64,000 nucleotides of DNA, from positions 1-64,000 of the forward strand of contig WFMF01000300.1 in assembly GCA_011033025.1 (NCBI GenBank). The letters are read 5' to 3'. This document shows, piece after piece, positions 37,673 through 63,300 of the stretch. A program made the position numbers and the translations under genes. The notes under the pieces were generated by a model. That model had not been told where the DNA came from and ran no database searches. It saw only the letters and a program-made list of their open reading frames with translations. Each line of letters starts with the position of its first letter. The stretch's first letter is position 1. The DNA comes from Beroe forskalii. Its lineage: Eukaryota; Ctenophora; Nuda; Beroida; Beroidae.

Positions 37673-37673
37673 A

Positions 37674-37770
<97 letters not shown>

Positions 37771-37854
37771 TTTAGTTAGTTAGTTAGAAAGTTAGTTCGT
37801 AAGTTAGTTAGTAATTTAGTTAGTAAGTTATTTAGTTAGTTAGTTAGTTAGTAG

Positions 37855-37900
<46 letters not shown>

Positions 37901-37936
37901 AAGATAGTTAGTAAGTTAGTTAGTTAGTTAGTTAGC

Positions 37937-37980
<44 letters not shown>

Positions 37981-38050
37981 CAGTTAGTCAGTTAGTTAGA
38001 TAGTTAGTTATATATAGATAGATAGTAAGTTGGTCAGTTAGTTAGTCAGT
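36775..38050. repeat. (GTTA)n microsatellite, first block
   Basis: About 1.28 kb of GTTA tetranucleotides with interspersed variants (GTAA, GTGA, TTTA, GAAA). Blocks of variants recur, for example the TATTTAGTTAGTTAGTTAGAA unit at 37290 and 37770, showing higher-order duplication. Confidence 0.95.
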
Positions 38051-38051
38051 T

Positions 38052-38841
38052 AACATGTGCAGATATTATGTCCAAATTCTCGGATTTTTTTGACCCTTTC
38101 TAAAGCATTTTTTACACATGCAGTACCGCCCTGGCCAGGGCAGAAGTAGAAAATAAGACCTATCTAGAACGATTATAGTCGTAAAATTTTGGGTCGATTT
38201 GATCAAAGACCTAAATGTCCTGGGTTATGGGCAAAATATAAGTGTCACAAATAGTTAGCATAATATCAGCGCGCTAGCGTCTCCATCGCAAGTTCACACA
38301 TACCTCAGTAGTCAGTCCTCGGCGCATTTTTGAGCGCACTTTTACGAGCTAAAGAAAGGGGGGTCAGCTCTCAAAAATGTTTCCACATTTCCGAAAGCAT
38401 AGGTACTTATCGAACTTTCAGAAAATTATATGGATTATGGGTTTCTTGATTTTTAATTGAGGTATACGCGATTTTCTAAAAAGTGGCGAAAATCGATTTC
38501 CTAATTTTAGGACAAGATTTCAAAATTTGAAGAACTGCGACTTATCTTGAGATGAGACCGGCCAAAGTATCCTTGATAAGGCTGAATTTTGCATTTGGAA
38601 ATTGATTTGAGCCTATTTTGGTGCTCTCAAATAAATACCTTGAGACAAATTTATAAGGTACGAAACTTGGGGATTTTTCGATAAATCCCAATATTTTCGT
38701 TCCCGACAATATTTCAATATGATGACATGATCATTCGTTAACATGCGTAATATTTCCAAAAATATCCCCAAATTTCGGTCCCAAAAAATTTCGATGCCCG
38801 GAATTATTGCTCCATGTAAATTTATTTCGTAAGGTAACGCA
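38052..38841. repeat. 0.79-kb segment, copy 1
   Basis: Unique-looking non-coding sequence beginning AACATGTGCAGATATTATGT and ending TTCGTAAGGTAACGCAA. It is repeated with few differences at 39464-40253. It sits between two GTTA blocks. Confidence 0.9.
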
Positions 38842-38865
38842 AGTTAGTTAGAAAGTTAGTTCGTA

Positions 38866-38948
<83 letters not shown>

Positions 38949-38970
38949 AAGTTAGTTAGTTAGTTAGTAG

Positions 38971-39048
<78 letters not shown>

Positions 39049-39069
39049 GAGTTAGTGAGTTAGTTAGTG

Positions 39070-39158
<89 letters not shown>

Positions 39159-39243
39159 GTTAGTGAGTTAGTGAGTTAGTTAGTGATTTAGTTAGTGATT
39201 TAGTAAGATAGTTAGTAATTTAGTTAGTAATTTAGTTAGTAAT

Positions 39244-39296
<53 letters not shown>

Positions 39297-39364
39297 AAGT
39301 TAGTTAGTTTGTTAGTTAGTTAGTTATTAAGATAGTTAGTAAGTTAGTTAGTTAGTTAGTTAGC

Positions 39365-39400
<36 letters not shown>

Positions 39401-39463
39401 CAGTTAGTTAGATAGTTAGTTATATATAGATAGATAGTAAGTTGGTCAGTTAGTTAGTCAGTT
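38842..39463. repeat. (GTTA)n microsatellite, second block
   Basis: About 620 bases of GTTA repeats ending in the same TATATATAGATAGATAGTAA and GTTGGTCAGTTAGTTAGTCA sequence that ends the first block. Block plus segment therefore form a duplicated unit. Confidence 0.95.
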
Positions 39464-40253
39464 AACATGTGCAGATATTATGTCCAAATTCTCGGGGTTT
39501 TTTGACCCTTTCTAAAGCATTTTTTACACATGCAGTACCGCCCTGGCCAGGGCAGAAGTAGAAAATAAGACCTATCTAGAACGATTATAGTCGTAAAATT
39601 TTGGGTCGATTTGATCAAAGACCTAAATGTCCTGGGTTATGGGCAAAATATAAGTGTCACAAATAGTTAGCATAATATCAGCGCGCTAGCGTCTCCATCA
39701 CAAGTTCACACATACCTCAGTAGTCAGTCCTCGGCGCATTTTTGAGCGCACTTTTACGAGCTAAAGAAAGGGGGTCAGCTCTCAAAATGTTTCCACATTT
39801 CCGAAAGCATAGGTACTTATCGAACTTTCAGAAAATTATATGGATTATGGGTTTCTTGATTTTTAATTGAGGTATACGCGATTTTCTAAAAAGTGGCGAA
39901 AATCGATTTCCTAATTTTAGGACAAGATTTCAAAATTTGAAGAACTGCGACTTATCTTGAGATGAGACCGGCCAAAGTATCCTTAATAAGGCTGAATTTT
40001 GCATTTGGAAATTGATTTGAGCCTATTTTGGTGCTCTCAAATAAATACCTTGAGACAAATTTATAAGGTACGAAACTTGGGGATTTTTCGATAAATCCCA
40101 ATATTTTCGTTCCCGACAATATTTCAATATGATGACATGATCATACGTTAACATGCGTAATATTCCCAAAAATATCCCCAAATTTCGGTCCCAAAAAATT
40201 TCGATGCCCGGAATTATTGCTCCATGTAAATTTATTTCGTAAGGTAACGCAAT
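39464..40253. repeat. 0.79-kb segment, copy 2
   Basis: Near-identical to 38052-38841, offset 1412 bases. Differences seen include CGGATTTTTTT versus CGGGGTTTTTT, CATCGCAAG versus CATCACAAG, and GATAAG versus AATAAG. After it, the sequence passes into unrelated DNA instead of GTTA. Confidence 0.9.
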
Positions 40254-43066: not shown

Positions 43067-43765
43067 GGTCGTATGAAAGTATACCAATGACCCCCTGCTG
43101 ACCCCCTACTGAACCCCTGCTGACCCCCTACTGACCCCCTGGTGAACCCCTGCTGACCCCCTGGTGAACCCCTACTGACTCCCTGCTGACCCCCTGCTGA
43201 CCCCCCACAGAACCCCTACTGACTCCCTGCTGACCCCCTGCTGACCCCCCACAGAACCCCCTACTGACCCCCTGGTGAACCCCTACTGACCGCTTTCTTT
43301 AAATTTCATTTTGCCTTATCACAAAGTAATAAGGCAAATAACCAGTCGACCGATGCACCCTCAACAGACCAAAATACCATGAACAGACCCAATATGTTAA
43401 GTATGCTATTTAAGTATTTTAGCTATATTAGTTGTGTTAGTTATGTTTGCCATTACTAACATAAATAACATGTCAAGCGTCATGATAAGGCAAAGTGAAA
43501 TTTAAAGTGCCTTTAGATGTTAAAAATCACTCATGATAGGAATTGAAACAATGATCAGAAAGTGGTCAGTAAGGGTTCACCAGGGGGTCAGTAGGGGTTC
43601 ACCAGGGGGTCAGTAGGGGGTCAGCAGGGGGTCTGTAGGGGGTCAGTAGGGGTTCACCAGGGGGTCAGTAGGGGTTCAGTAGGGGGTCAGTAAGGGGTCA
43701 GCAGGGGGTCAGTAGGGTGTCAGCAGGGGGTCAGTAGGGGGTCATTGGTATACTTTCATATGGCC
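43067..43765 (+). mobile_element. Foldback element with minisatellite arms (699 bp)
   Basis: Inverted ends GGTCGTATGAAAGTATACCA (left) and its diverged complement at the right. Each end is followed inward by an array of an 11-12 base unit (CTGACCCCCTG/CTGAACCCCTA), then by inverted TTTAAATTTCATTTTGCCTT / AAGGCAAAGTGAAATTTAAA. The loop is about 150 bases. An 8-base duplication CTCTTAAT flanks it (43059-43066, 43766-43773). The diverged repeat at 42825-42832 is an uninterrupted copy of the target. No ORF. Confidence 0.85.
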
Positions 43766-43773
43766 CTCTTAAT

Positions 43774-44746
43774 TAATGCACCACGTACTGTCAACTTGTC
43801 AATTTGGTATCTACCTCGGTATGGCGTGTGATCGCCTTGCCGCATTTGTGTTTTGTTACGAAAAATTTACACGGTGTCATTTTTTAATCGAATCGTGAAC
43901 TTTAACAACTGAATAAAAATTATCATACCTTTTATTTCTTTGCAAGTAATCTTGATAGATCTTCTGTCGCAAACTCCCCCCCCCCTCCACCCGAACACGA
44001 AAGTTCCATTCAGAACAAATTACTATTTAGTTATAACTACTAAGTTATGATTCTCAACAGTTGAAACGTCTCAAAAGTAAATAAAAACGAAATTGCAGAT
44101 GCTTCGTTAAAATGCACGTGCTGTGTAGCGCGCGCTACAACATGTAGCCATAGCAACGCGCACAACAGGTGAATTCAACCTAGAACGCGATCTTTATTTT
44201 AGGGTAGATTTTTCGGACTTTCGACTTTATTTGCCAACAATTTAAAGCCTAAATCCTATTTTTGGCCATGTATTTTTTAATTTTAGCCATTGCAAAAAAT
44301 CGCAGCTTTTTATTATTATTCATATAAGCCAGTAGAAGTGCCTCTTTCCTTTATATTAAAGTTGCTCCGAAAATTACGACGTTTAGTTTTAATATGGGCT
44401 AGTTAAAAAAGTCTGGTCAAAAAAGGCCTGTACAATAATATTTCCCGGCCAATAAGGCATGTTAATGTATACATTAATAATGTTCCTACTTACTCACTAA
44501 CCTTCTGATCCTCCCTAGGTAATGTTCATGTCTTATGGGTAGTTAGAAAACAGTGTTTCTTAACACTACTTATCCTACCTGAAGAGTGTTTTTCAACACT
44601 TCTGCTTCATAGTGTTTTACTGTGTTCTTTAACACGACTTTAACACACAGACAGCTCAGTACTTGAGCTCATCCAGCGCCCGGATTGCTGAATAGCAATA
44701 TAGTAGCATTTTAACTCTGATTGAGATCAACTTGATTTGAAAGACA
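43774..44746. other. Non-coding, 5' flank of the KDZ-type transposon
   Basis: No ORF. A C-run at 43975-43990. 44555-44645 has a repeated GTGTTTNTTAACAC motif close to the first transposon ORF, which may belong to its 5' region. Element terminal repeats were not identified. Confidence 0.4.
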
Positions 44747-47700
44747 ATGGATCTTCAGCAGATGCTTCAAGTATCTTCTCTTTTGATGAGTGAATCTTTT
44801 CTCAGATGCAGCCTGTTTGTACATGATTTGCAGGATCCTGACGATGGTCTGATAAACTATTTTCAAAAGCCTTCATTATTGGAAAAGATACGGCCAGAAC
44901 ACAAGTATTCAAATATCTTATTACTGAATACATCATCAGGCTGGATTGTGTATACAAACCTACACAGATCAGGATTTGTGGGGTCTGTGTCAGCCTACTT
45001 TGTGAGAGAACAGGCTCTGCCGGTTGTTTCTTCGCGGTATAAGCAGCTCCTCAGTCACTACTTCCCCGGCATGACGAATGTGGTGTACTATGGCATCTAT
45101 GACTATTCTTCTTTTGATAAAAATGGCATCATGGCAGCTTTGCTTTCAATTCATTCGGTACTCAGAAATGGTCGAATGACAATAAGAAGTATCTTGCAAT
45201 CAGAACAATCTGTTGAATCGATCTGCAGAATGCTGCAAGCAATGCTGAGAAATGGAGCAGTAAATAATTTTCCAGTTTCATTCTACCCTTCTTATCTCGG
45301 AGTCGATGACGAATCTCAAAACGAAACTGAGATACCTGTCAGAAATGTCAAATTCATGGAAGCTTCACGCTTAGAGGAGCAAAATGCCATTAACATTGGA
45401 CTTTCAGTTACTGCAAATCCTAGCCACATCAAGGGCGGAGTTTTCGTGAGTGATGTGTTTCATGGCCAATACGACGAGTCAACTTTGGTCAAAAGAGATG
45501 ACTCTGATGAGGAGGGACATGAAAGAGGTGACATTCTCAAAAGTTCGAGAGAGAATATCAAGGCTGGAATTGCAAAACAACGCAAGCTGGAACTGGAAGT
45601 CGAGAGAGAATTGACTCGAAAAGAATTGGAAACAGATGAGGAGGCTGAGAATGTCACACCATCGGACAACGAAGGGCCTGTCTCATCTGAGTCCGAAGAG
45701 AGCAATTCCGATGACTTGCCAGAATTTGATATAGGTGTTGGGGAGATGATCATCACTGATAGAGATATGGACATAGCTAATGAAAAAGCGAGCATTAGTA
45801 TTGAAGAGATGCAAGTTGAAGAATGTTTGCCATCCAAAAGTACAGTCATTGTTGATGGAAGGACTGAAGAGCCACGAGACAAAGTACGTGTTGTCAATAG
45901 AAAGTGTAAGAAGTTCAAACGCAACCTTTCTATTGATATTCCTGATACAGAACCTGAATGTATTGTGATTGGAGGTAGGATGCTGGACAGTGCAACTGTG
46001 ACTAAAAAAACTGAACATAATGATGCTAACAGAATTTTTATCAATGTAGAATCAGACAGCTCGAGTGATCATAACATGGATGCAGACATGGATGAAAATC
46101 TTTGTGATGGCCGAAACTTAGCAAAAGAAGACTCACATGGGTTGAGTGGTCACAATGTTGAAGTCAATGCTGAGAATCCAGACAATGACAGAAACATAGC
46201 AAAGGACGACTCGCAGGGATTGAGTGATCATAATGCTGCAGTCAATGTTGAGAATCTTGAAAATGACAGAAACTTAACAAAAGAAGACTCACAGGGATTG
46301 AGTGATCATAATGCTGCAGTCAATGCTGAGAATCTTGACAATGACAGCAACTTAACAAATGAAGACTCACATGGGTTGAGTGGTCACAATGTTGATGTCA
46401 ATGCTGAGAATCTTGACAATGACAGCAACTTAGCAGACATTGATGACAATCTTTGCGATGGCAGAAACTTGCCTCAAGAAGACACAAACGAGTTGATCCA
46501 CGGTAATGCTGTAGATAATGCTGACAATCCTGATACTCAACTTAGAGATGATGACACCATTGTTAACGATGGCCACCGAGGAAGTAACAACGATGGTTGT
46601 TACAGTGTTTATATACCAGCTTTGATTCCAGCAAACGAGGACTTCCTCAAAATAAAGGAAACCAAAGATTCAACACTCATTGCTAAGTATAAGAAGGACT
46701 TAGGATGTTATGACCACTGCACAGCAGCTAAGAAGATGAGGAAAGCAAAATCCGGTAAACCCATGAAGCACTATCATTGTCCAAACAAAGGCAGATGTCT
46801 CTACTTTGATAAAGAATTTCTTAATCGCCTAATACCTCATGCTCTGAAATGTACCCATGGAAAAGAAAGGGTCGTATTAAGGAAAGAAAATCGTGAACAA
46901 GCTATTGGCTATACTGGAACACCTGTAAAACCTGACGGCTCAGATCAAGTTGAGGCTGTAGGAGTAGCACCTGTTGATGAAGAACAAACGGCGGGCCATG
47001 GATCAGGTAATACTAACTTGGCAGGAAAGACCAGCAAAGGAAATTTAAGATTTGAAAATGAAGATGGCATCCAAGTAGTAAGTGAAAAATCAGAAGATGA
47101 AGGTTCGGTCAGTTATCATTCAGTTGATACAGGAAATGTTAGATTGGAAAACTTTGAAAACGTCCCGGGAAGCAGAGAGAAGCCAGAAGATGATCATTTG
47201 TCAGGTAAAGCCAATGATGAATGTGCTGGTGCAGAGGCAGATGACGCATTGAGAAATGTAAATGGGTTCAACATAGACACCAGAAACAAATCAGATGATG
47301 ACGCTTTGCCAGACATGGTCACTGACAGATGTAGATCGGTGGGTAAAGAAAATGCTACTTTGGCAGACACATTTTTTGCAAGGAATTCGAAATCAGGTAC
47401 AACTGTATCAAAAGATGATAATATTGATGAATCGATCGCAAGGGTGTGCTGGGGAAGTGAAGGTCACTGTGCTAAAGGAAAAAGAAAGAATGCTTTGTCG
47501 GCATCAAAGCACTTCCACTGCCAAAACTGCGATGAAAATGTTTTCTTTCGTTATCAAAGGGTTTTGAAGCATTTTATAAGATGTACTAAATATTCGTCCA
47601 ATAAGGACGTAAGTGAGAGCGCCACTGATAGCACCAAGCTCATAAACGCGAAGGATAAGCCTCTTCTCCAGAAACATCATAAACTACAGTGCGCAGCAGT

Positions 47701-47875
47701 AGACAGAGCTCATGGCATGTTCTTAGTTTCATCGTCGTTGACAGGCTTAAAGAAGCCAGTGCATGTAAAGATAACACAAAATGAGATGAAATGCACGAGC
47801 AGGGTGTGTATTGATATTTCAGAAAGTGCACGCCAGTCAGGCGATGCTTTTAACCTGTGTGAGCATATATGTTAG
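44747..47875 (+). CDS. Transposon protein: Ulp1-like N-terminus, acidic repeats, zinc fingers
   Basis: 1042 residues from ATG 44747. Residues about 54-140 (ILLLNTSSGWIVYTN, GSVSAYFV, YYGIYDYSSFDKNGIMAAL) follow the strand-helix order of an Ulp1/C48 protease, but the catalytic His, Asp and Cys positions are replaced. Residues 240-440 are acidic and Ser-rich. Residues about 440-565 hold four 26-residue repeats (GLSDHNAAVNAENLDN type). Two related fingers follow, HCPNKGRCLYFDKEFLN-H-x4-C (about 677-705) and HCQNCDENVFFRYQRV-H-x4-C (about 921-947). The C-terminus (KCTSRVCID ... FNLCEHI) looks like the start of a SWIM-like finger whose continuation is in the next ORF. The stop overlaps the next ATG (ATGTTAG), so the two may originally be one protein. 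Confidence 0.7.
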   Translation: MDLQQMLQVSSLLMSESFLRCSLFVHDLQDPDDGLINYFQKPSLLEKIRPEHKYSNILLLNTSSGWIVYTNLHRSGFVGSVSAYFVREQALPVVSSRYKQLLSHYFPGMTNVVYYGIYDYSSFDKNGIMAALLSIHSVLRNGRMTIRSILQSEQSVESICRMLQAMLRNGAVNNFPVSFYPSYLGVDDESQNETEIPVRNVKFMEASRLEEQNAINIGLSVTANPSHIKGGVFVSDVFHGQYDESTLVKRDDSDEEGHERGDILKSSRENIKAGIAKQRKLELEVERELTRKELETDEEAENVTPSDNEGPVSSESEESNSDDLPEFDIGVGEMIITDRDMDIANEKASISIEEMQVEECLPSKSTVIVDGRTEEPRDKVRVVNRKCKKFKRNLSIDIPDTEPECIVIGGRMLDSATVTKKTEHNDANRIFINVESDSSSDHNMDADMDENLCDGRNLAKEDSHGLSGHNVEVNAENPDNDRNIAKDDSQGLSDHNAAVNVENLENDRNLTKEDSQGLSDHNAAVNAENLDNDSNLTNEDSHGLSGHNVDVNAENLDNDSNLADIDDNLCDGRNLPQEDTNELIHGNAVDNADNPDTQLRDDDTIVNDGHRGSNNDGCYSVYIPALIPANEDFLKIKETKDSTLIAKYKKDLGCYDHCTAAKKMRKAKSGKPMKHYHCPNKGRCLYFDKEFLNRLIPHALKCTHGKERVVLRKENREQAIGYTGTPVKPDGSDQVEAVGVAPVDEEQTAGHGSGNTNLAGKTSKGNLRFENEDGIQVVSEKSEDEGSVSYHSVDTGNVRLENFENVPGSREKPEDDHLSGKANDECAGAEADDALRNVNGFNIDTRNKSDDDALPDMVTDRCRSVGKENATLADTFFARNSKSGTTVSKDDNIDESIARVCWGSEGHCAKGKRKNALSASKHFHCQNCDENVFFRYQRVLKHFIRCTKYSSNKDVSESATDSTKLINAKDKPLLQKHHKLQCAAVDRAHGMFLVSSSLTGLKKPVHVKITQNEMKCTSRVCIDISESARQSGDAFNLCEHIC

Positions 47876-49933
47876 CTGCGAATTATTTCAAAGAACATGA
47901 TACTAACCCTGAACATAATGACATGTTTGAAGCTCATATGATGCGTGAAAATAAAGACATAACAAACATTGAAAAAGAACACATTGGAACGTTACTAAGA
48001 GAAAAATATAAGCAGAACTCTCCCATCATAAGAATGTTCCATCCAACTAAAAAGGGTGAAAAAGAAAGTGATGTTCTTCAGGATCATGTATATTTCAGTG
48101 TACTATTTGGAGAGTCACTTGAAGGAAGGGAGAAAATTCAGCATGAGTCCTATTTGGGACGTGTTCTTGTAACTTATTCCAATGGAAAATTAAAATGTGG
48201 GTCTTGCAAAGAGCGTCGGTGTAAACACACTTTGGTTACAATGATGGTTATAAACAATACACTTCTCCATGATGGTCAGGAAAAGTTGGTTTTAGACAAG
48301 GATGTGAAACACGATGGTCTGACACCAAGAGGGTTTACACTAGATCCATTGATTAAAGAACAAATTGAATACATTTATGATAACAAAAGGGTCCCATTTG
48401 AAGTTCCTCACGAGCTCAAAAACAAGCCTTCCAAGAAAACATTTTGTCCAGAAGAGTCAGAGTGCCATAAATGCCATCATATTCTGGAGACTAAAATCAA
48501 AACCAAAAATGGTGTGATATTTTGTCTGGAGAAAAAGTTCACTGGCATCACAGTTGAGGTGAAGACCTGCCCAACATGTAAGCTTGAGTTCAGGTACCAG
48601 GATATATCTGAAGGCTTTCACAATTTCAACAACAATTCATTTTTCAGCATCAAACTTATGGAAACACTTATAAACAGCTGGACAGAGGGAATACCACTTT
48701 CACGGCAATTGACAGTGCTACAACAAAATGTGTCACCCGAAAGTGGCTACAAATTGGACGAAAACTTGATGGCCAAGGCGTTGAGCCACTATCTAGCTTT
48801 GAAGGAGGACCCGAAGTATGCATCATGCTATAGGTGTGGTCATTATCCAGCAATAATCATAATGGACGCTATTAGAAAAATAGCGTTTGATTTAGATAGT
48901 ACAGATGTTGAATATGGTAGTGACAAGTGTTATAATAATTTTGATGATATGAAGAAAAATGCCAGCATGAAAGCTTTGATGAATGGTTTTGTTGACAGAG
49001 GAGTAAAGGCAGCAGAGTTAAAACCGTACGGGTTAAGGACCCCTTACTCATTACCACCTTATGTTAACAATGCGAACAGAGCAGGTCAAACTGCACCTTC
49101 CACCAGGAGATTTGGGCCTGATAATAAGGATGTAACAGAAAGAGGTGACGAGGAGACCATCCATCCTCAGCGCATTCTGGATTTATATGAGGCTAAGGGA
49201 TCAACAGAAGCCATGAAGAATATCTGTAGGAAGGCTGGCTTGCCCATTGGCACAAAATCAGAAATGCGGGATGCCATGCTAAAAGCCTCTGGTTCTGTTT
49301 ACACAGAAATCTGCAAGAACTTTGCGTCTATCACCGGCAAATCAGGTGGGCTTCTTCATGGTCACTGCCAACATGGCTTCACTTATACATTCAAAATTCT
49401 CGTCCTGCCTGAAGGAGTCTCAGACTATACGCGATTACCACCCTGAATTCCGAAAACACGGAATCCCGAAAGTCGGAATCCCGAAAGAATCTGGTCATAT
49501 TCGGAATTCGGATTTTCGGGATTCCAGGGGTTTGCAACACGGAATTCCGAAAATTGAATTTCCTTTACTATTCGGTTAATGAGTCCTATAATCAAGCAAT
49601 TATCCTGTGTTCACGTATAACAAAATTATTAAAGGTACACGAAAGGCAAAAGAAAACAAACTGAATAGACGTATCGCCTTTATCAATCGGTAGGTAAAGT
49701 ATTAACAATAACAAGAGAGATTTCGTACATACTATATAATAATGGCATAATTCTAAACCGTCAAAGGCGGCATCATACATATCATTGAATAAGCGTACCA
49801 AGATTTGATACTGGATACGCCTAATAAGCTAATACTCTAATGGACATCAAGTATTCCACTATTCATGGTTACAAAACATACAAAAATGTCATATCAGACA
49901 ACGTAACTATATGCACAATATTTCCGTTTAAAT

Positions 49934-50018
49934 TGTTTATTACTGCCAATCGCTAAGATGACCCATGGATCTACACTGTAGATCCATGGGTCATCTTAGC
50001 GATTGGCAGTAATAAACA
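49934..50018. repeat. Perfect palindrome, 42-base arms
   Basis: TGTTTATTACTGCCAATCGC starts the left arm; a single central base (C) separates the arms. No mismatch was seen. Inside the MULE at the 3' end of its transposase. Confidence 0.92.
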
Positions 50019-50879
50019 TAAATATAGTCTGTCCACGATTGCCCTGTACTGTAGACTACAGTACAGGGCAATCGTGGACAGACTATATTTTTGAACAGTT
50101 TTCTTGATCCTCTCATTGCGTTTAACGAACTTGTTCCTGGGCTTCCGTGTGGCTTGCATTCCAGTTGAGGACTGTAGTATTTTCAGCTCTGCTTCAGCCG
50201 TAAACTTCGTCAGTATGTCCATCAAACGAGACATCGTAGGACTGGAGCACCCAGCAGCCGTGTTCAGCGCATTGTTTGATCCCTCGGAGAAGTTGTTTGT
50301 CCTCGGGTCATCATTCAAAGTGCTCTCATAATGATTCCACATCTCTACAGGATAGCAGGGGTTGTTCAACCAGGTGGACTCGAAATAGGTGACAAACTCA
50401 GCTGTTTCAGGATATTGACTGAGGCATGATTTGATGTAAGTCCAACCAACCATGACATCTTGAACCGGAACGAAAGCAAGACCATAGATCGAGTGTAGAC
50501 TTGTTTTCATCAGCTCGTTGTCTGCATAGTTCTTGATTTTCCTGAATCTTCTCAACAGACATTGTTTCCAATGAAATAGACACCCTTTAATGATGGCATT
50601 GGGAAAGTGATTTCTGATTGCTATGTGTTCTGATTTTTCGAAGTCCACCATAAAGGTCAATGAGCTAAATTCAGGACAATGATTCTTGACAATGTTCAAT
50701 GAGGCGTCATCTCTGGATAGTAGAATCCTACTTGTGTTACTCAGAACGTTGCGAAGGAAAGCATGGTCAGATGCTGTAGATTCGGCATCGTCAATAGCAG
50801 TAGAGTTGGCGACAGGGACTGGGATATAATCATCCTGCACCAGATGAGCAAAGCCTAAAGCTAATTGCATAACCGTCAA
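49971..50879 (-). pseudogene. MULE transposase, C-terminal part
   Basis: 302-residue minus-strand ORF. It has the MULE signature: MVDFEKSEHIAIRNHFPNA then GCLFHWKQCL (second catalytic Asp and the CxxH motif), FESTWLNNPCYPVEMWN, and RTNNFSEGSNNALN (catalytic Glu). The N-terminal part with the first Asp is absent; minus-strand sequence 50880-51800 has no continuing ORF. The last 40 codons run into two palindromes and are not family-like, so the C-terminus is altered too. Likely unable to act alone. Confidence 0.8.
50020..50090. repeat. Perfect palindrome, 35-base arms
   Basis: AAATATAGTCTGTCCACGAT starts the left arm; a single central base (A) separates the arms. It is one base from the preceding palindrome, with an unrelated sequence. 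Confidence 0.92.
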
Positions 50880-52837
50880 TGTTGTGGTGCTCTAGTTAAC
50901 CCGATAATTTGAACTTAAAGCAGTACCTTGATCCCAAAAATAACATTAAAGTTTTTCTTGTGTTATATTCATTTTTCTTTGATTATTTTATTAGTTTATG
51001 ATTGAACAATAAAAATTAAGTGACAATTAGGTGCACATATATTATGTTGAACTAAATAGGTAGCCACGCTGGTAAAATAACTGATCCATATTATTGCAGC
51101 TCGTGCAAACTGATTAGCTTAGGTATTACATGAAATTCGTGTGAACTGGTGTGACACAAGTTATTCTTTGATTTAAGCCATTTAATTACGACTAAAAAAT
51201 TTCATTCCGTTGGAACACCCCCCACTTTTTGAAATCACGAAAATATGAGTGAAAATCATGAAATACACCCCCCACTTTTGGAATGGTTTCAGCATCCTTG
51301 CATGATGAACGTCGGTATAGAGTGTGAAAAGCATATCTTTTTATATGGTTTTGTTGTTGTTTTTGTTGTGAATTGGGCATAATTGGGTTTAATCGGGTTT
51401 TTTTCCTCATGAAAGGCAAATTCTGTCATTTCCTGTAGACAGGAACTTAAAAAATACCAATGACGGATGACCGACGGTAGCTCATTAGCTCAAGCTGCGG
51501 ATGTGATGGTTATTCCTCATTACACCCACAAACAATGCTAACGATGTTTGTTGTTTCATCGTAATGGTCAATTGATAACGCTTACTTGACAGGTTAGAAT
51601 AACAGTGTAACAGGAGAAATTACGTATCGTGTGATTTATGTGTTTCGAGAGATCGATATACTTAACCGAATCAAGTATCGGACTGTCTAGACTTAACCCA
51701 TTCGGAATTCAGAATTTCGGGACTCCGAAGTTTTCGGGATTCCGGGGGTAAGCTTCGGAATCCCGAATGTTCACTTTTGGAGGAAATCATTCGGAATTCG
51801 GAATTTCGGGATTCCGTGTTTTCGGAATTCCGGGGGTATACCCTATACGCAATGTATAATGTCCATGGATGTCCTACCTACTATGGTCATTTCTGACATA
51901 GCGCATATTTTGGCAAGGCACACCAACTTAAACCATGGCACCGACATCTTTTGGCCATATGACGGCAGAATTTCTGATCCTGATAATACGGAGAGAACGG
52001 AGGACATCAAAGGTGGCAAATGCAAAGTAAACTTTGACTTTATTATACCTAAAGCAGGACCATTTGACAAGGAGGCTCATGATCAACGTTTGAGTCCTCA
52101 TCCTATGACGGGCCACACATCAAGACTTAGTGTCTTAGATAGGTTTCATCAGACAGGGCAGAAGAACACCACGTTGAGAAGGTTAGGTAACATTGAAGGA
52201 TTTGTAGGCCGTGTTAACACGCAAGCTGCCGAACAGGCAAATAGTGTAATCAAGAAGAAAGGGTGGTTTATGAATGAATTGTCCAAGGAAAACTTCGTTT
52301 TGCTCTTTTGGTATAAGCTCATGAAAAAGAACATTCAGATAAATTCCGAATATATGTTAACACTGAGAAAGAAGTACCCGAGCAGAAACATTCATACCAA
52401 CAGTAAGGGTGTTGCTGTGACCACATCTTACGAGGAAAGTATGGGAAAGACAGATGATACTTATGGCTCCAACTCAGATAAAAAGTCTGTTGACCCAGAC
52501 TATCCGGTGGCGGTGCTGAAGAATCCTGGTGACACTGCTCTGGAAATTGCGTGGTTCAATACAGTTTTTTACATGATGTTCTATGGGCCATTTTTCGAGA
52601 GGCTCCAAGCAGTGAGTGACAACTTACCATCAACATACGCTCGTTTGGTGAACCTCCTCAATGAGGGCTATAATGAAACAGCTCACATCAACATAGCAAG
52701 AGAATTTGGAACCACATTGAAGAAAGAGTCTTCCGCTTCGTTCGTTATTCAGGGAGTATGTGATATATATGAGACTATGGCTGAAACGACAGACGTCACT
52801 GTGCTCCTCGTTTCATTAGCAGGAATATCATCAGCAC

Positions 52838-53434
52838 ATGCTGTATCTAAGATCACTCACGAAAATTCAACAAAGGATTCATTCCAAGGGACAGCAACCT
52901 GAGCTGGTCGTAGTGACAAATCCTGATGGCTTTGTGCTCAAAGACGTTAAATGCGAATTCAGTGTGAGAACAAAGGGAGACCCGGTGTCTTATCATGCAG
53001 TGTGCTGCAGCAACACAATCCCTTCGGTGACAGGGCTCATAGCCCACCAGACTTCTGTAAGACGAAACAGACGCTTTTTCAGTTTGGTTGACGACAAGTT
53101 GAAAATGACGTCAGAATCTGGGTTTGTTTCGAACATGAAGAAGTCTGATGTCATCATCTTCCGAAGATATGTGCCTTCTGTTCTTAAAAATGAAGAGAGT
53201 TCATCATCCAAAATGTCTGGTTGTGACAAACAAGGATCGAAGAGGAAGGTCAAAGAATTTGAGTTTGATCCACTTCAAGAGCCCATACATAAGAAAGCAA
53301 AGAAAGATACGAATTGTATGAAAGCTGAATCGTCACGAGTTTGGCTGGAAAGTAATCCGACTTCAAGAACACCGGAATTGCTTCAGGAGCATCGCCAGAT
53401 ATTATACAGTGTGAACAAACAGTATGATAACTAA
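52838..53434 (+). CDS. Transposon linker ORF preceding the Ulp1 protease
   Basis: 198 residues from ATG 52838, overlapping the end of the transposase ORF by 65 bases in another frame. Residues 24-115 (LVVVTNPDGFVLKDVK, TGLIAHQTSVRRNRRFFSLV, DDKLKMTSESG, SDVIIFRRY) resemble the end of a UCH/USP deubiquitinase fold (H-x-GHY-W-DD...YLLFYRR pattern) without a clear catalytic set. This is a tentative reading. The basic SKRKVKEFEFD stretch with KKAKK could be a nuclear signal. It ends with TAA, three bases before the ATG of the protease, in the same frame. Confidence 0.55.
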   Translation: MLYLRSLTKIQQRIHSKGQQPELVVVTNPDGFVLKDVKCEFSVRTKGDPVSYHAVCCSNTIPSVTGLIAHQTSVRRNRRFFSLVDDKLKMTSESGFVSNMKKSDVIIFRRYVPSVLKNEESSSSKMSGCDKQGSKRKVKEFEFDPLQEPIHKKAKKDTNCMKAESSRVWLESNPTSRTPELLQEHRQILYSVNKQYDN

Positions 53435-53437
53435 ATC

Positions 53438-54052
53438 ATGGATACTGTTGCAACCTTGATATCAAGTGAATATAATGTCAACTATCAGATGATAAGGAAT
53501 CATACCATTGAACAACTTGTGACAGGTGATAGCAGTGAATCGAGGTTCATCCAGATCATTCACATTTATGGCTGCCACTGGGTGGTGATGTCAAATGTTA
53601 TGAGTGATGACCCTAAGGACATTGAGGTTTTTGATTCACTATGGACTCAAGCATCCATGCGGGATGCAAGGTTAAGGCTTATGCCAGCAACTGACAAAAT
53701 AGTGAGAGCTGCTTTGCAGCTTAACCCATGGTGTAGGACACTGAGATATATCAGGGTACAGCAACAGATTGGAGGCTACAATGGGTGTGGGCCACTTTCT
53801 TTAATGAACTTCTGGTGTCTGTCTAAAAAAATGTATCCCCATTGGTTCCCTTATGCCCTTGAACCAATTCTGAGATCAAGAATCAAGTCAATTGTTGAGC
53901 AAGGAGAAGCCTCACCTATATTAAGTGACCGTAGAGCTGACAGGACTAAAGAAAAGGAAGAACTGCTTGTTTACAGGAGAACACTGGATAACAGTGATGA
54001 TAATTTCCATCTTGAAAAAAATATGGTCTTACGTCAGTTGAATCGGGGATGA
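53438..54052 (+). CDS. Ulp1/SENP-type cysteine protease (C48 family) of the transposon
   Basis: 204 residues from ATG 53438. Catalytic residues fit C48: His47 (YGCHWVVMSN), Asp66 (EVFDSLW), Gln108-110 (VQQQ) and Cys117 (GYNGCGPLSLMNFW). C48 enzymes cut SUMO or related ubiquitin-like proteins; several DNA-transposon lineages carry them. The region before His47 (IMDTVATLISSEYNVNYQMI) also resembles the family, and the preceding ORF ends in the same frame one TAA codon earlier. The protease may once have been continuous with it. The C-terminal 40 residues are charged with no named motif. Confidence 0.8.
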   Translation: MDTVATLISSEYNVNYQMIRNHTIEQLVTGDSSESRFIQIIHIYGCHWVVMSNVMSDDPKDIEVFDSLWTQASMRDARLRLMPATDKIVRAALQLNPWCRTLRYIRVQQQIGGYNGCGPLSLMNFWCLSKKMYPHWFPYALEPILRSRIKSIVEQGEASPILSDRRADRTKEKEELLVYRRTLDNSDDNFHLEKNMVLRQLNRG

Positions 54053-54239: not shown

Positions 54240-57110
54240 AATAAATGTATCTATTCGAAAAAAGCAGTCCTCAGCATGGCTGAAACTGTCGAGAATACGG
54301 GTCTCCGTTTAGAACAGTGTGTAGGTGTGTTTGTTGTGGGGGTGTCGGGATATCTGCTACCTGAGTAAACTACCAGGAGCATGTCAAAGATGGGAGTATT
54401 TTACTGTATCTATTCGAAAAAAGCAGTCCTCAGCATGGCTGAAACTGTCGAGAATACGGGTCTCCGTTTAGAACAGTGTGTAGGTGTGTTTGTTGTGGAG
54501 GTGTCGGGATATCTGCTACCTGAGAAAACTACCAGGAGCATGTCAAAGATGGGAGTATTTTACTGTATCTATTCGAAAAAAGCAGTCCTCAGCATGGCTG
54601 AAACTGTCGAGAATACGGGTCTCCGTTTAGAACAGTGTGTAGGTGTGTTTGTTGTGGGGGTGTCGGGATATCTGCTACCTGAGTAAACTACCAGGAGCAT
54701 GTCAAAGATGGGAGTATTTTACTGTATCTATTCGAAAAAAGCATTCCTCAGCATGGCTGAAACTGTCGAGAATACGGGTCTCCGTTTAGAACAGTGTGTA
54801 GGTGTGTTCGTTGTGGGGGTGTCGGGATTTCTGCTACCTGAGTAAACTACCAGGAGCATGTCAAAGATGGGAGTATTTTACTGTATCTATTCGAAAAAAG
54901 CAGTCCTCAGCATGGCTGAAACTGTCGAGAATACGGGTCTCCGTTTAGAACAGTGTGTGTAGGTGTGTTTTGTTGTGGGGTGTCAAAGGGATTTCTGCTA
55001 CCTGAGAAAACTACCAGGAGCATGTCAAAGATGGGAGTATTTTACTGTATCTATTCGAAAAAAGCAGTCCTCAGCATGGCTGAAACTGTCGAGAATACGG
55101 GTCTCCGTTTAGAACAGTGTGTAGGTGTGTTCGTTGTGGAGGTGTCGGGATATCTGCTACCTGAGTAAACTACCAGGAGCATGTCAAAGATGGGAGTATT
55201 TTACTGTATCTATTCGAAAAAAGCAGTTCTCAGCATGGCTGAAACTGTCGAGAATACGGCCGGTCTCCGTTTAGAACAGTGTGTAGGTGTGTTTGTTGTG
55301 GGGGTGTCGGGATTTCTGCTACCTGAGTAAACTACCAGGAGCATGTCAAAGATGGGAGTATTTTACTGTATCTATTCGAAAAAAGCAGTCCTCAGCATGG
55401 CTGAAACTGTCGAGAATACGGGTCTCCGTTTAGAACAGTGTGTAGGTGTGTTTGTTGTGGAGGTGTCGGGATATCTGCTACCTGAGTAAACTACCAGGAG
55501 CATGTCAAAGATGGGAGTATTTTACTGTATCTATTCGAAAAAAGCAGTCCTCAGCATGGCTGAAACTGTCGAGAATACGGGTCTCCGTTTAGAACAGTGT
55601 GTAGGTGTGTTCGTTGTGGGGGTGTCGGGATTTCTGCTACCTGAGAAAACTACCAGGAGCATGTCAAAGATGGGAGTATTTTACTGTATCTATTCGAAAA
55701 AAAGCAGTCCTCAGCATGGCTGAAACTGTCGAGAATACGGGTCTCCGTTTAGAACAGTGTGTAGGTGTGTTTGTTGTGGGGGTGTCGGGATTTCTGCTAC
55801 CTGAGAAAACTACCAGGAGCATGTCAAAGATGGGAGTATTTTACTGTATCTATTCGAAAAAAGCAGTCCTCAGCATGGCTGAAACTGTCGAGAATACGGG
55901 TCTCCGTTTAGAACAGTGTGTAGGTGCGTTTGTTGTGGAGGTGTCAAGGATATCTGCTACCTGAGTAAACTACCAGGAGCATGTCAAAGATGGGAGTATT
56001 TTACTGTATCTATTCGAAAAAAGCATTCCTCAGCATGGCTGAAACTGTCGAGAATACGGGTCTCCGTTTAGAACAGTGTGTAGGTGTGTTCGTTGTGGGG
56101 GTGTCGGGATTTCTGCTACCTGAGTAAACTACCAGGAGCATGTCAAAGATGGGAGTATTTTACTGTATCTATTCGAAAAAAGCATTCCTCAGCATGGCTG
56201 AAACTGTCGAGAATACGGGTCTCCGTTTAGAACAGTGTGTAGGTGTGTTCGTTGTGGGGGTGTCTGGATTTCTGCTACCTGAGTAAACTACCAGGAGCAT
56301 GTCAAAGATGGGAGTATTTTACTGTATCTATTCGAAAAAAGCAGTCCTCAGCATGGCTGAAACTGTCGAGAATACGGGTCTCCGTTTAGAACAGTGTGTA
56401 GGTGTGTTCGTTGTGGGGGTGTCGGGATTTCTGCTACCTGAGAAAACTACCAGGAGCATGTCAAAGATGGGAGTATTTTACTGTATCTATTCGAAAAAAG
56501 CAGTCTTCAGCATGGCTGAAACTGTCGAGAATACGGGTCTCCGTTTAGAACAGTGTGTAGGTGTGTTTGTTGTGGGGATGTCGGGATTTCTGCTACCTGA
56601 GTAAACTACCAGGAGGCAGGAGCATGTCAAAGATGGGAGTATTTTACTGTATCTATTCGAAAAAAGCAGTCCTCAGCATGGCTGAAACTGTCGAGAATAC
56701 GGGTCTCCGTTTAGAACAGTGTGTAGGTGTGTTCGTTGTGGGGGTGTCGGGATTTCTGCTACCTGAGAAAACTACCAGGAGCATGTCAAAGATGGGAGTA
56801 TTTTACTGTATCTATTCGAAAAAAGCAGTCCTCAGCATGGCTGAAACTGTCGAGAATACGGGTCTCCGTTTAGAACAGTGTGTAGGTGTGTTCGTTGTGG
56901 GGTGTCGGGATTTCTGCTACCTGAGTAAACTACCAGGAGCATGTCAAAGATGGGAGTATTTTACTGTATCTCTATTCGAAAAAAAGCAGTCCTCAGCATG
57001 GCTGAAACTGTCGAGAATACGGGTCTCCGTTTAGAACAGTGTGTAGGTGTGTTCGTTGTGGGGGTGTCGGGATTTCTGCTACCTGAGTAAACTACCAGGA
57101 TCAGGTCCAA
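54240..57110 (+). repeat. 159-bp satellite array (18 copies)
   Basis: Eighteen head-to-tail copies, counted by GAATACGGGTCTCC (one variant AATACGGCCGGTCTCC), with spacing 159. The unit contains ACTACCAGGAGCATGTCAAA, TATCTATTCGAAAAAAGCAG and AACAGTGTGTAGGTGTGTT. Since 159 is three times 53, a frame of MSKMGVFYCIYSKKAVL then MAETVENTGLRLEQCVG stays open across copies that have GAGAAAACT and stops in those with GAGTAAACT. A few indels (54958, 55700, 56930, 56970) shift frame. Copies are about 97-99 percent alike by eye. Confidence 0.95.
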
Positions 57111-57186
57111 GGTAATTTGGAATTTTACTGTACTGTAAGTTGAAATTTTATTGAGGACTGTCATTATCAAATTGGTAAGACGATAC

Positions 57187-58381: not shown

Positions 58382-58910
58382 ATTTATTTGGATACACAAC
58401 CTAGTTTATTCAGTAAGAACTTGTCATTCCTGAGAAATCGTTTTAAATTATTTAATGGCAGTAATTTTGAGATTGCTATTTTCAATTAAATATCATTTCT
58501 ATTCATGATGGTATTATCATCAATAATAATGTCATTATCAAATTGGTAAGACGATACTTTTATTTCGACACACAACCTAGTTTATGTGCTACAATACTGA
58601 AATCGTGAACAATATGAAATAATGTATTTCATGGTAGAACGGAGATTATTCTGTTAGGATTTATTAAAGCACTTTTTAAGCTGTTATGTGTTGACGGATG
58701 GCTTTGTTGCTTCATGATTAACCAATGTTAACATTTTGTAGGTTTTAAGATGTAAGAAGAATCTGAATATCACCTTCGATAGAATTTCCAGTGATCCGTG
58801 ATAGGAATTGAGAAGTGTAAATAATACATTGGACTAGCTTTAAAGTTTTAAATTTGATATCGGTGATCTGGCCAGAAATATATTACCACTGAAAAGATAC
58901 GATGATGCAT
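58382..58910. other. Non-coding flank with duplicated target sequence
   Basis: 58397-58420 (ACACAACCTAGTTTATTCAG) and 58567-58590 (ACACAACCTAGTTTATGTGC), with GTCATTATCAAATTGGTAAG at 57160 and 58531, show a local direct duplication that predates the hAT-like insertion. No gene. Confidence 0.6.
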
Positions 58911-58986
58911 AAGAGTAGTTATTGGTCGGCTGATATCATCGAGTGGCGAAGCCACGAGATGATATCAGCCGACCAATAACGCTCTT
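58911..58986. repeat. Near-perfect palindrome with 3-base loop
   Basis: Arms of about 36 bases (AAGAGTAGTTATTGGTCGGC ... with the complement ending CCAATAACGCTCTT) around a GAA loop. A one-base indel and a few mismatches are present (GAGTGGC / GCCACGA). Confidence 0.85.
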
Positions 58987-59907
58987 ATTTTCCTTGTAAT
59001 CTATAAAACACAGTACAAAAGTTGCAGCGAATAGACCATGTCATGTCTTGGGGGTTTAAGGTAAATTTATAATTAAAATATAGGTATAAATATGCAAATT
59101 AAAATCATGCATTCAAGAGTAACAAAAAATCTAAGTTAATTTTTACATATAGGTCAATTTTTGTCATTCATACATTCAACTAGCAAGTAATTTATATGAG
59201 TTTAATAATAATTTAAGGCCTGAAAAGGTATGAGATGCTCTGGGCTAAAACGGGTCATCAGTTGGGCAGGGTGATTGTGCAGTACAAAGTGTACCACACG
59301 CGGTTTTTCGGCCCCTAGCCCAATAAACCATACACCCCGGGGCCATGGAAACAGACAATGAGTACACTGTACTGTATCCATCCCGACTGTAACCAAAAAC
59401 TTAAAAAGAAACACTTGTTTTCATGAAAAAGATGTTTTAAATGGTTTTGAATGCTACGAAAAACATACCGTTGGTACCATTACTTTACACGAGTTACTTT
59501 GATCATCAAAAGTTCAAATAAGGGAACAAGAGGTATTAAGATTCAATGAATGGTAATAAATAAATAATCACAGAGGCAATAAATAAGGCAATTTATGAGA
59601 ATAGGGAGGATGAGCTGAAAACCTCAGGAATTAAGATAAAAGGAATAGTAGACAATTTTGTAGACCAGGCTGGCGCCTGGTGGGAAGATATGGCAAAACC
59701 TCAAGAATTGATATGAATGTATAAATAAAGATTTGGAGACAAATTATAGGAGTAGGCTGGCGTCGCCGACAAGATCTAATTTTTAAAAATTTTATAAAAA
59801 TATTTGAAGTTGGAAGAAGCAGGAGAGTACGTGGTATGAGTTATATGAAGTCGATTACAAAAGAATTTAGTAAATTTAATGATTTAAAGTTCAAACTATT
59901 TCATGTT
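58987..59907. other. Non-coding stretch
   Basis: No supported gene. CCGGGGCCATGG-type GC island at 59280-59345. 59655-59775 has GGCTGGCGCCTGG and GGCTGGCGTCGCC, which may be the 3' region of the following RT element. Confidence 0.4.
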
Positions 59908-60790
59908 TTAAGGTAATGAGATAAAGTGAAGTAAGTAACATTGAAATTTGGCAGTATATTGTATTTCTGTAAAATATTCTTTTGTTAGGAATTTGAAAAG
60001 TTTCTTTAGAAGGATATGCCTTTTACAGCCTTTGGATTCCATGGTGGAAAACAAGGATTTTAAGGATATTAGGAAGTATTTAAGGTCATTGCATACACGT
60101 GCGTATCGTATAACTTGTGTTAGGAAGACATTATAGACAGTCGTGCTGTGTATATTACTTTTAACAGATGGATATTTAACAATGGGAAAACCAAATTTGT
60201 CTCTTTTATCATAAAGAAAGGTTGTAAAGGTATTAGAATTAGAGTCAATCATCATGTCAATTTCTAGCATGGAGGTACGGCTATTATCAGCATTTTCCTT
60301 GTTGATTACTAGTCCTGGTGAATAAATGCTGTCCTTGTAACGTTCAAAATAGCCAAAGTTATTTTTAGGGTTTATATCATCCAGAAACCGATGGGTATAA
60401 TTAAAAAGTTTAGCAACGTGAAGTTTTTTTCTGCATAAATTTTCAATGAAAACAAATTCATCTTTATATAAAACTAAATTTGCTTGATAAGGCGCTTGAT
60501 TATCTCCCATTGGGACACCAATTTTTTGAATTAAGGTTATATCTCCGCATTTAAAATAAGTATTGTGAACAAGCCATGTATGTAGAATAATGCTCTCTTT
60601 GAAGTCAAAATTAAATTTTTATTAGTTAATTTGCTAGAGAAAAAAGCAGATTTGCAACTAAGTGAATTAAAAGAAATGAATTTTCGGTTGTGATTATTAA
60701 AGGCTTTATTGATACACCAGTTTATATTAGAAATTAAAGAGTCATGATTTAAGTTGGTGTAAAGGGTGGAAAAAAATCGTAAGATTCTAT
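59908..60790 (-). pseudogene. Reverse transcriptase fragment of a retroelement
   Basis: Minus strand. An upstream part (about 60780-60650) gives FSTLYTNLNHDSL, the motif-A region of RT. After a frameshift near an A5/T run (about 60615) it continues FDFKESI, NTYFKCGD, IGVPMGDNQAPYQANLVLY (motif B) and YTHRFLDDI (motif C, F-x-DD). It then ends with YDKRDKFGFPIVKYPSVKSN and FLTQVIRYARVC. The order fits a family of animal RTs with PMGxNxAP and YIDD boxes, probably Penelope-like or a related class; that placement is uncertain. The motif-A Asp is not clear because of homopolymer length (GATTTTTTTCC). Non-functional copy. Confidence 0.7.
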
Positions 60791-63300
60791 AACAGGTAAC
60801 CTCAGTACTTATAACTTATCAATGAGATTTTGGAAATGCGTTTTTGGAATTTCTGTTAATTAAAAAAACTCCTACTAATTAGTTATTAGTGCACAGGTCG
60901 CACGAATTAAGTGACGCACTTATTTACATAGTTGTTACACAGTACTATACGCACGTAACGAATTTTTAAACGGTGACGAATGTAACGAATTTTTCAAAGC
61001 CCAGGGATAATTACAATTTTTCGTGAGATTATGTTTCAAAATCAGGAAAAATTTTCGAAAGCGTGAATTCTGTTGTGATTTCATAAAACATTTCGATTTT
61101 CCTTAATTTGAAATATGAAATAAGTGCCGAATTTCGGCTAAATTTTTGACAAATGTAACAACTACCTATGCCTATTTAACCAAGCAAGGTAACTGACTAC
61201 TTGGGTTATCTCTCGCATAAATTCAGCTTAGAAAGTAAAAATTACGTCAGATTTCTTGTTTCGAATAGCGAATTGATCACGTTAAATCGCCTATTTTCCG
61301 TGCAAGACCTACATAGTTGCATACCGCACGCTTCTTCCTTCGGACTGCTGCACCTCTTTGGCATTGTTCCAGCCGTGAGCAGTGAGATATCGATTCACCG
61401 AAAAGTTATTTAACGGCTTGCTATCCGATACAAGTTCTGGTGCTTGCTTCACAAGCACGGTGCTCAGCAGGATATCCTATGTGACTGGTTGAGAGGGCAT
61501 CACGTGGCTAGTCACGTGGTTATTCGGCTCGGGCACGCTCAAGCCACGAGTGCAGGGGCAGGGGTAGTTGGAAAATAATATTACAAACATCACAAGAATT
61601 TAAAGTGAAGCCAATTAGTTTGCACCTTTTCAAGCCGTGGTCTTTTCTGTTGTACAGATGCGGTACATTTGAGGTAATATATTTCTGGGAAGGGTGAGAT
61701 TCCCTTCGACGCCTCACCATCAGGGTCGTCACCCATAAAGGACAAATTAATATTGTAGCTGTAGCTTATGCTTTTCTTATGAATAATTTCGAAATGAATC
61801 TCCGAAATTCCGAGTATTTGATCAACTAATGATTCATTGTGTTCATACGTCATCGGAATAGTCCTTTATTGGTGAACCCTAGGCCGTGGCCAAGGTCTGA
61901 CATAATTGCGATCCTAATATCTTCAACAACTCTCATGAACAATACATTTTATATGGACGCACTAAATATCTGGATCTTCAATTATAGTCAGCTATGGTGT
62001 CTACAGACGCAATGGGATGGTTCACTAGCGCAAGCGTCCAGTTCTATATTTCTGTGAAAAATCCCTCTGCGAGATGGTGTTTTAACTTTTATTTCAAGAA
62101 ACTAGCAGTTCTTTTTGAATGATCGTTATTTTCAATCTTTATTAAATGATTATTTTATGTGTTATTTTTATGTGTTTTATGTGTTAAAGGCCCCCGACCG
62201 AGAAATTTCAAATTTTAATTTTCCATTTTTTATGGTGGAATGTGTTTTTATAGGTGAAATATCAACAATAAGAGCGAAAATCCGGTTTCAATATGACGCT
62301 CATAGCCGCTAATAGCTAATTTAGTTACGAAATTCCTCAAAGGGCAGCAGAATTTTCCCCGTAGTATGGCGGATATTTCTTCGTACGTGATGATGAGAGG
62401 TTTTGTAACTAGCAAAAATTGCAAACCGCGATATTACGGGCACAGCAAAAGTTTTTGAATATTACCTTGATTAGTATTTGAGTAGTTGAATAAACTTGAT
62501 TCTTATAGTAAATGGTGCGACGCTTGAAATATTTACCTTTTATTATTGTTCATATTATAAATTCTGTCAATGATCAAAGCTACATCATGGAACCGACGGT
62601 ATGTTTTTCAAAGCAAGCAAAACCATTTAAGATATATCATATAGTTATCACAAAAAGGATGATGCAAACGATGGCAATTTTAAAGTTATGAGATTTGAGA
62701 TTTTTAATTTTTAGAGAGGAGGAAGTGCAAGCTGTAACGTTTTCTTCAATATATGTAATATATACCTACTAATATTATAAATTAAAAACAGCATTACTTT
62801 TGTTGTGTTTAATACTCTATTATTTTGATCTATTGAGAAGTTCTTGATTCGTGTTTGTCGTTTGAGAGCTATCGCATATTATGTCATCAGACAAAGGGGG
62901 GGGGGTTCCAAATGATTACAGATGATGACAGAGGGGAGGGAGTGGGTTGATGATGTAATATGTAAGGGTCCCCTTTTCCATTTTTATTGGAGTTTAATAT
63001 ATATGTAGCGATATGATCATTTCGGAAATAATGGTTTCAATTTTATCAAATCCATAAACATTTTTCTTTTAATCACTCAGCAGTTATTCAATTATCTAAA
63101 TCAGCTTTGTTTATATTAAAAGTTGACACTTTAATGGTTGCAATAACGTTTCATATTATTTTAGGATAGAAGGGTTATCATGCATAAGCTAGGCAGAAAA
63201 CTCGGCGACGGAACAGTACAGGAGTTTCCTTCTCGTGGTGGACCATCTGCACTACAGCTCCTTCTTATCGGGGGTACTTTTAACATATAATTTAAGATTG
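60791..63300. other. Non-coding stretch of 2.5 kb
   Basis: AT-rich. 62870-62975 (G-run, TTCCAAATGATTACAGATGATG, GGGAGGGAG) resembles a decayed copy of the Harbinger-like MITE family. 63163-63290 after a TTTTAG has a short open frame with LGRKLGDGTVQEFPSRGG that ends TAA; it could be a terminal exon but has no family match I recognise. Confidence 0.4.

What the first reader, a model, noticed from the sequence alone, without database searches (positions are those of the whole stretch)
44747..54052. KDZ/HMGXB3-type transposon that carries its own Ulp1 protease
One 9-kb plus-strand block combines an acidic zinc-finger protein, a DDE-type transposase with CxC5/CxC6-like Cys clusters, and a C48 protease with an intact His-Asp-Gln-Cys set. 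Ulp1 proteases in DNA transposons may act on SUMO or ubiquitin-like conjugates at insertion sites or silencing complexes. The full gene set in an animal genome, with an extra protein of unknown role, deserves description as a possible new transposon family.
Basis: partly seen in the sequence, partly recalled or inferred. Interest (0 to 1): 0.8.

Follow-up and report, generated by a model that had tools for sequence, protein, structure and literature searches.

The report
Dead comb-jelly transposase with SUMO-protease domain
The block is a broken copy of a jumping-gene-like protein family, with named relatives so far only in a comb jelly, in which one very long protein joins a DNA-cutting transposase to a SUMO-type protease and to a second, apparently switched-off ubiquitin-protease fold, which hints that such proteins act on their host's protein tags.

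The parts
44517..44746 (+). Leader shared with C691a; holds three GTGTTNNNNAACAC palindromes at 44553, 44586 and 44622
   Evidence: Alignment to C691a, start judged by eye; 3 matches in the window against 0.14 expected, 0 of 100 shuffles reach 3; 2 in C691a and 1 in C691b, none in 65 of 68 loci
44747..47872 (+). N-terminal part of the protein: acidic (179 D/E, 122 K/R in 1042 aa), 78-bp internal repeats at 46113-46435, two Cys/His finger-like stretches at 46706-46852 and 47447-47584
   Evidence: aligns inside the 2506-aa frame of C691a; no Pfam match at E<=1
47866..49432 (+). SWIM-like C-x-C..C-x-H (48193-48228), CxC4 (48424-48729), first catalytic Asp motif (48856-48879), SAP-like insert (49171-49284)
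   Evidence: CxC4 E 6e-13; motif coordinates; the SWIM-like Cys/His columns and the first Asp are invariant in 18 relatives; SAP is called from relatives (13 of 27 rows at E<=5), not from the window piece
49433..51842 (-). Nested 2410-bp DNA transposon with inverted ends, 8-bp duplication CTATACGC at 49425-49432 and 51843-51850, MULE-like remnant at 49974-50888 (-)
   Evidence: MULE E 3.7e-4, 21.3 bits, below the cut-off of 27.6
51851..52899 (+). Second half of the transposase core: second Asp motif (51886-51903), Glu motif (52216-52242); start of the USP-like domain with its degenerate Cys box (52516-52578, Ala at the Cys place)
   Evidence: Asp and Glu invariant in 18 relatives
52862..53431 (+). 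Rest of the USP-like domain (conserved end at 53045-53176) and linker; frame shifted against the part before; ends at a stop, 53432-53434
53438..54049 (+). Ulp1 (C48) protease domain with His, Asp, Gln and Cys
   Evidence: fold shown on relative P0020
54246..57111 (.). 159-bp tandem array, 17.9 copies, also present 3' of C691a and C691b
58408..58912 (.). Non-coding segment shared with C691a at 84%, directly next to the following one there
58913..61574 (.). Stretch absent from C691a at this place, so a later insertion or a deletion there; holds a minus-strand ORF at 59908-60618
   Evidence: no Pfam match for the ORF
61575..62082 (.). Non-coding segment shared with C691a at 80%

Best explanation
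A dead copy of a giant single-frame transposase of a family whose named relatives are ctenophore proteins. Intact relatives encode one protein of about 1,100-2,500 aa: acidic N-terminus with Cys/His fingers, SWIM-like and CxC4 zinc modules, a DDE core with a SAP-like insert, a USP-fold domain that has mostly lost its nucleophile, and a C-terminal Ulp1-type protease with an intact catalytic set. Most likely working (inferred): the zinc and SAP parts bind element and target DNA, the DDE core cuts and joins DNA, the pseudo-USP docks on ubiquitin-like marks or partner proteins, and the Ulp1 domain strips SUMO or a similar tag from silencing or repair proteins at the site. Shown here: architecture, USP and Ulp1 folds in a model of a relative, conserved catalytic residues, constraint on the coding sequence, dead state of this copy. 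Inferred: transposition by this protein, the substrate, the docking role.
Against: No terminal inverted repeats or target duplications found for the element itself. Coding pieces of different copies in this genome are at most about 91% alike, which does not look like recent bursts. KDZ profile 0 of 27. No solved transposase structure among the rows shown for the core. The two near-identical Mnemiopsis gene models stop inside the USP-like region and so lack Ulp1 as annotated. 2 of 21 loci have no Ulp1 match.
Confidence: 0.6

Rival explanations
1. A domesticated, transposase-derived host gene family that duplicates slowly and keeps its catalytic residues for a cellular job; not a transposon now.
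For: Long intact frames despite deep divergence between copies and low dN/dS; no ends found; two pairs of copies lie near each other on one contig (C691, about 25 kb; C173, about 60 kb).
Against: Copies are spread over 18 contigs, with dead and fragmentary ones among them (C360, C284, C153); Mnemiopsis proteins 99% alike on different multi-Mb contigs, although haplotype contigs were not ruled out.
Confidence: 0.3
2. A true but diverged KDZ (Zisupton-like) transposon whose KDZ core the Pfam model misses.
For: CxC4, described by Pfam as associated with KDZ transposases, in 22 of 27 rows and CxC5 in 7 of 27, at E<=5; Asp-Asp-Glu core next to it.
Against: PF18758 0 of 27; inverted repeats like the 139-241-bp ones of Cryptococcus KDZ elements (PMC12810828, passages) were not found.
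Confidence: 0.3
3. The Ulp1 domain is a processing enzyme that cuts the giant chain into products, rather than acting on host conjugates.
For: One very long chain with a low-confidence linker before Ulp1 (model residues 733-796). That related proteases process polyproteins in some viruses is recalled.
Against: No conserved Gly-Gly seen in that linker when the consensus was read by eye. Closest folds are SUMO and NEDD8 proteases. No direct test.
Confidence: 0.15

Closest known systems
Ginger1 DNA transposons (PMC2836005, passages)
   Same: Animal DNA transposon whose DDE transposase carries a C-terminal Ulp1 (or OTU) protease domain in the same protein
   Different: Ginger1 has a Gypsy-integrase-like core with H2C2 finger and GPY/F motif, 44-270-bp inverted repeats and lengths of about 2.6-7 kb; here CxC4 and SAP-like modules, a USP fold besides Ulp1, frames up to 2506 aa, no inverted repeats found
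KDZ (Kyakuja-Dileera-Zisupton) transposons (PMC12730594, PMC12810828, PMC12062965; passages)
   Same: Cys-cluster zinc modules of the CxC type; DDE-type core; large elements
   Different: PF18758 not detected; no inverted repeats found; no Ulp1 mentioned in the passages seen. The founding papers could not be read
Plant MULE and CACTA elements with Ulp1 regions (PMC2528002, PMC2836005; passages)
   Same: Ulp1 domain carried by a DNA transposon
   Different: Other transposase families
Pseudo-USP proteins (Pan2 and a yeast splicing factor appear among the fold matches)
   Same: USP fold; in most rows here the nucleophile is lost
   Different: Those are host proteins; that they are inactive is taken from the entry title for Pan2 and from recall for the other
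HMGXB3 (recalled, not tested)
   Same: Recalled to share the CxC4 zinc cluster and a transposase-derived region
   Different: No HMGXB3 sequence was compared here

Membership tests
KDZ transposons | KDZ transposase domain (PF18758) | tested here: not met
   0 of 27 rows at E<=5; sequence profile only. The family search of the genome was uninformative because nothing rang in the controls either
KDZ transposons | CxC-type cysteine cluster | tested here: met
   CxC4 over the cut-off in the window piece; 22 of 27 rows at E<=5
KDZ transposons | Terminal inverted repeats (139-241 bp in Cryptococcus) and 4-8-bp target duplications | tested here: inconclusive
   Nothing convincing in the flanks of 7 copies; the flanks held are 0.3-6.7 kb on the 5' side and 1.9-9.9 kb on the 3' side, so ends further out are not excluded
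Ulp1/C48 (CE-clan) proteases | Fold and His-Asp-Gln-Cys set | tested here: met
USP (C19/C98) fold | USP fold | tested here: met
USP (C19/C98) fold | Catalytic Cys | tested here: not met
   17 Ser, 2 Ala (one the window), 2 Thr and 2 Cys in 23 rows; 14 Ser and 1 Cys in the 15 of 18 genome copies where the box was found
Ginger1 | Gypsy-integrase-like core with GPY/F motif | tested here: inconclusive
   No integrase family in the Pfam scans; the GPY/F motif was not looked for
HMGXB3 | Homology along the transposase-derived region | not tested
   No HMGXB3 sequence at hand; none among the proteins found that bear a name

The most novel reading that the evidence does not exclude
A transposase lineage that carries two different ubiquitin-family protease folds in tandem: an ancestral USP (still with Cys, and with candidate His and Asp, in distant relatives P0026 and P0029) that became a docking pseudo-protease, and an active Ulp1, so that one protein both reads and erases ubiquitin-like marks where it inserts.
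Probability: 0.35. Interest if true: 0.75.

Novelty: new variant of a known kind. Interest (0 to 1): 0.52.

Why it matters
Proteases for ubiquitin-like tags recur in unrelated DNA transposons (Ginger1, MULE, CACTA), and why they do is open. A family with an intact Ulp1 set, constrained coding sequence and a second, degenerate USP fold, with members in the laboratory ctenophore Mnemiopsis, would let one test directly whether transposases edit SUMO or ubiquitin marks to move or to avoid silencing.

Tried and rejected
An intron there was rejected on the same ground; the reading phase agrees on both sides. A separate gene for the acidic protein was rejected because relatives have it in the same frame.

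Element ends: inverted-repeat searches in the window and C691a and then in the flanks of 7 copies gave nothing convincing. DNA searches with flanks showed that 44041-44362 belongs to an abundant repeat (43 matches listed for the query) and that part of the C1002 3' flank is repetitive (77 matches listed for the query); two short copies were read and no element end was shown. The 5' leaders of C1002 and C717 are 95-98% alike over short pieces while their coding parts are 81-85% alike; not explained. No solved transposase appeared among the 50 rows shown by Foldseek or by VIA-align for the core; this is no evidence of absence. The single-sequence model of the window Ulp1 piece was useless (pLDDT 38.2). 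The PF18758 genome search was uninformative. Pfam found nothing for the minus-strand ORF at 59911-60618, which looked RT-like by eye. PHROGs and NCBIfam gave nothing of use. The KDZ and Zisupton founding papers are not held. Literature searches whose listings showed no report of this architecture: (open-licence library only).

Rows left out before counts: Ulp1 residues were read in 15 of 19 places (the other 4 were not cut out); C284 and C153 transposase pieces were left out of the tree; the USP box was found by pattern in 15 of 18 genome copies (not in C173b, C690, C1097); dN/dS was computed for 11 comparisons over 6 pairs of copies, and dS was not computable in the 5 comparisons with the window. 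Pattern checks of the first Asp and the Glu each missed 1 of 18 genome copies (C1097 and C173b) over; the pattern for the second Asp was too loose to count there.

Full report
WHAT IS THERE. The window is contig C360:1-64000 of a 216-Mb genome of 1134 contigs. On the plus strand 44747-54049 holds open frames 44747-47872, 47866-49443, 51850-52899, 52820-53431 and 53438-54049. Pfam finds CxC4 (a KDZ-associated cysteine cluster) at E 6e-13 in the second piece and a weak C48 match (E 0.09, 13.0 bits against a cut-off of 20.7) in the last; the first, third and fourth have no match at E<=1.

ONE PROTEIN, NOT THREE. Protein searches of the same genome gave 23 matches of the second piece and 19 of the Ulp1 piece; such counts are lower bounds. 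With the split fragments in C284 and in C153 counted once each these are 21 loci; 19 have an Ulp1 match and 2 (C173b, C284) do not. In 12 of these 19 the open frame reported for the transposase match and for the Ulp1 match is the same: C691a 2506 aa, C237 2472, C791 2090, C690 1974, C1002 1905, C717 1775, C1068 1480 (its Ulp1 match runs over one stop), C259 1480, C270 1479, C1 1463, C991 1391, C1097 1099. The window's N-terminal part aligns inside the C691a frame.

THE WINDOW COPY IS DEAD. Against relatives the frame breaks near 47.87 kb and near 52.86-52.89 kb, and a stop stands at 53432-53434. Between 49433 and 51842 lies a nested element of 2410 bp: inverted ends (48 nt, 90%), the 8-bp duplication CTATACGC on either side, reading phase agreeing on both sides, and a minus-strand MULE-like remnant (E 3.7e-4, below the cut-off).

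EXTENT. BLAST finds collinear sequence shared with C691a up to 62082; by eye the match runs from about 44517 to about 62160. It comprises a leader with three GTGTTNNNNAACAC palindromes (0.14 expected in the window), the coding part, a 159-bp tandem array at 54246-57111 (also beside C691a and C691b), and two non-coding segments, 58408-58912 (84%) and 61575-62082 (80%), which adjoin in C691a and were found at no third place (one short 37-bp self-match apart). They are more alike than the coding DNA (66-75% in pieces over 100 bp); I cannot explain this. No terminal inverted repeats were found.

CATALYTIC RESIDUES. Ulp1 His, Asp, Gln and Cys are present in 15 of 15 genome loci read, the window included, of 19 places. 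Among the database relatives P0024 lacks the Cys motif. At the USP Cys place the 23 rows of A3 that show the box have Ser 17, Ala 2 (one is the window), Thr 2, Cys 2 (P0026, P0029) (counted by eye). P0026 and P0029 also have Gly-Gly-His and an Asp where USPs have their catalytic His and Asp (the USP pattern is recalled). Of 18 genome copies the box was found in 15: 14 Ser and one Cys (C691b).

SELECTION AND MOBILITY. In 11 comparisons over 6 pairs of genome copies dN is 0.04-0.19 and dS 0.19-2.1, ratio about 0.05-0.29. The tree (45 rows) joins the window with C691a, C691b and C1068 (100/100); it warns that deeper joins of long branches may be false. Other lineages of this genome group with database proteins of unnamed sources (for example C690 with P0015, C237 and C991 with P0016 and P0017, all 100/100 or 100/99). 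Two Mnemiopsis leidyi proteins, P0012 and P0014, agree at 889 of 898 residues and lie on contigs of 15.6 and 12.6 Mb. I read this as recent movement, though haplotype contigs were not ruled out; as annotated both stop inside the USP-like region and lack Ulp1. Against mobility in this genome: coding pieces of different copies are at most about 91% alike and no ends were found.

ORIGIN. The three relatives that carry an organism name are Mnemiopsis leidyi. That the window is from a ctenophore is an inference.

KNOWN KINDS. Ginger1 transposases have a C-terminal Ulp1 or OTU protease (PMC2836005, passages). Plant MULE and CACTA elements carry Ulp1 (PMC2528002, passages). KDZ elements of Cryptococcus have 139-241-bp inverted repeats and 4-8-bp duplications (PMC12810828, passages); Zisupton makes 8-bp duplications (PMC12730594, passages), and one platyfish Zisupton isoform has an F-box, another ubiquitin-pathway domain (PMC12062965, passages). 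No paper of the open library holds both Zisupton and Ulp1. The founding KDZ and Zisupton papers could not be read, so Ulp1 in them is not excluded.

MECHANISM. Best guess: a DDE cut-and-paste protein that carries its own UBL protease to strip SUMO-like tags from silencing or repair proteins, with a pseudo-USP as docking module. Shown are architecture, folds and residues; substrate, docking and transposition are inferred. Rivals are a domesticated gene family, a diverged KDZ transposon, and polyprotein self-processing.

VERDICT. A decayed member of a transposase family with an integral Ulp1 protease and a mostly degenerate USP fold. New variant of a known kind; KDZ membership not shown; the role of the protease pair is unknown but testable.

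Noticed in passing
window 58408-58912 and 61575-62082; C691:1332140-1333163: Non-coding segments 3' of the window copy and of C691a are 80-84% alike, more than the coding DNA, and were found at no third place.
   Followed up: partly
window 54246-57111; flanks of C691a, C691b, C237, C991, C1002, C717: Tandem arrays lie beside several copies (159-bp units 3' of the window and C691 copies; others 3' of C237/C991 by eye, and 5' of C1002/C717). Their role is unknown.
   Followed up: partly
window 44041-44362: Abundant genomic repeat of about 320 bp just upstream of the leader (43 matches listed).
   Followed up: no
P0026 and P0029 (database proteins, source unnamed): Distant relatives with both a USP domain that keeps Cys and candidate His and Asp, and a C48 domain.
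   Followed up: partly
window 43067-43765: Large inverted pair of 11-bp tandem repeat arrays with arms up to 193 nt.
   Followed up: no
window 36770-38052 and 38842-39464: Long AGTT arrays of about 320 and 155 units.
   Followed up: no
window 59908-60618 (-): 236-aa open frame that looks reverse-transcriptase-like by eye, inside a stretch absent from C691a; no Pfam match.
   Followed up: partly
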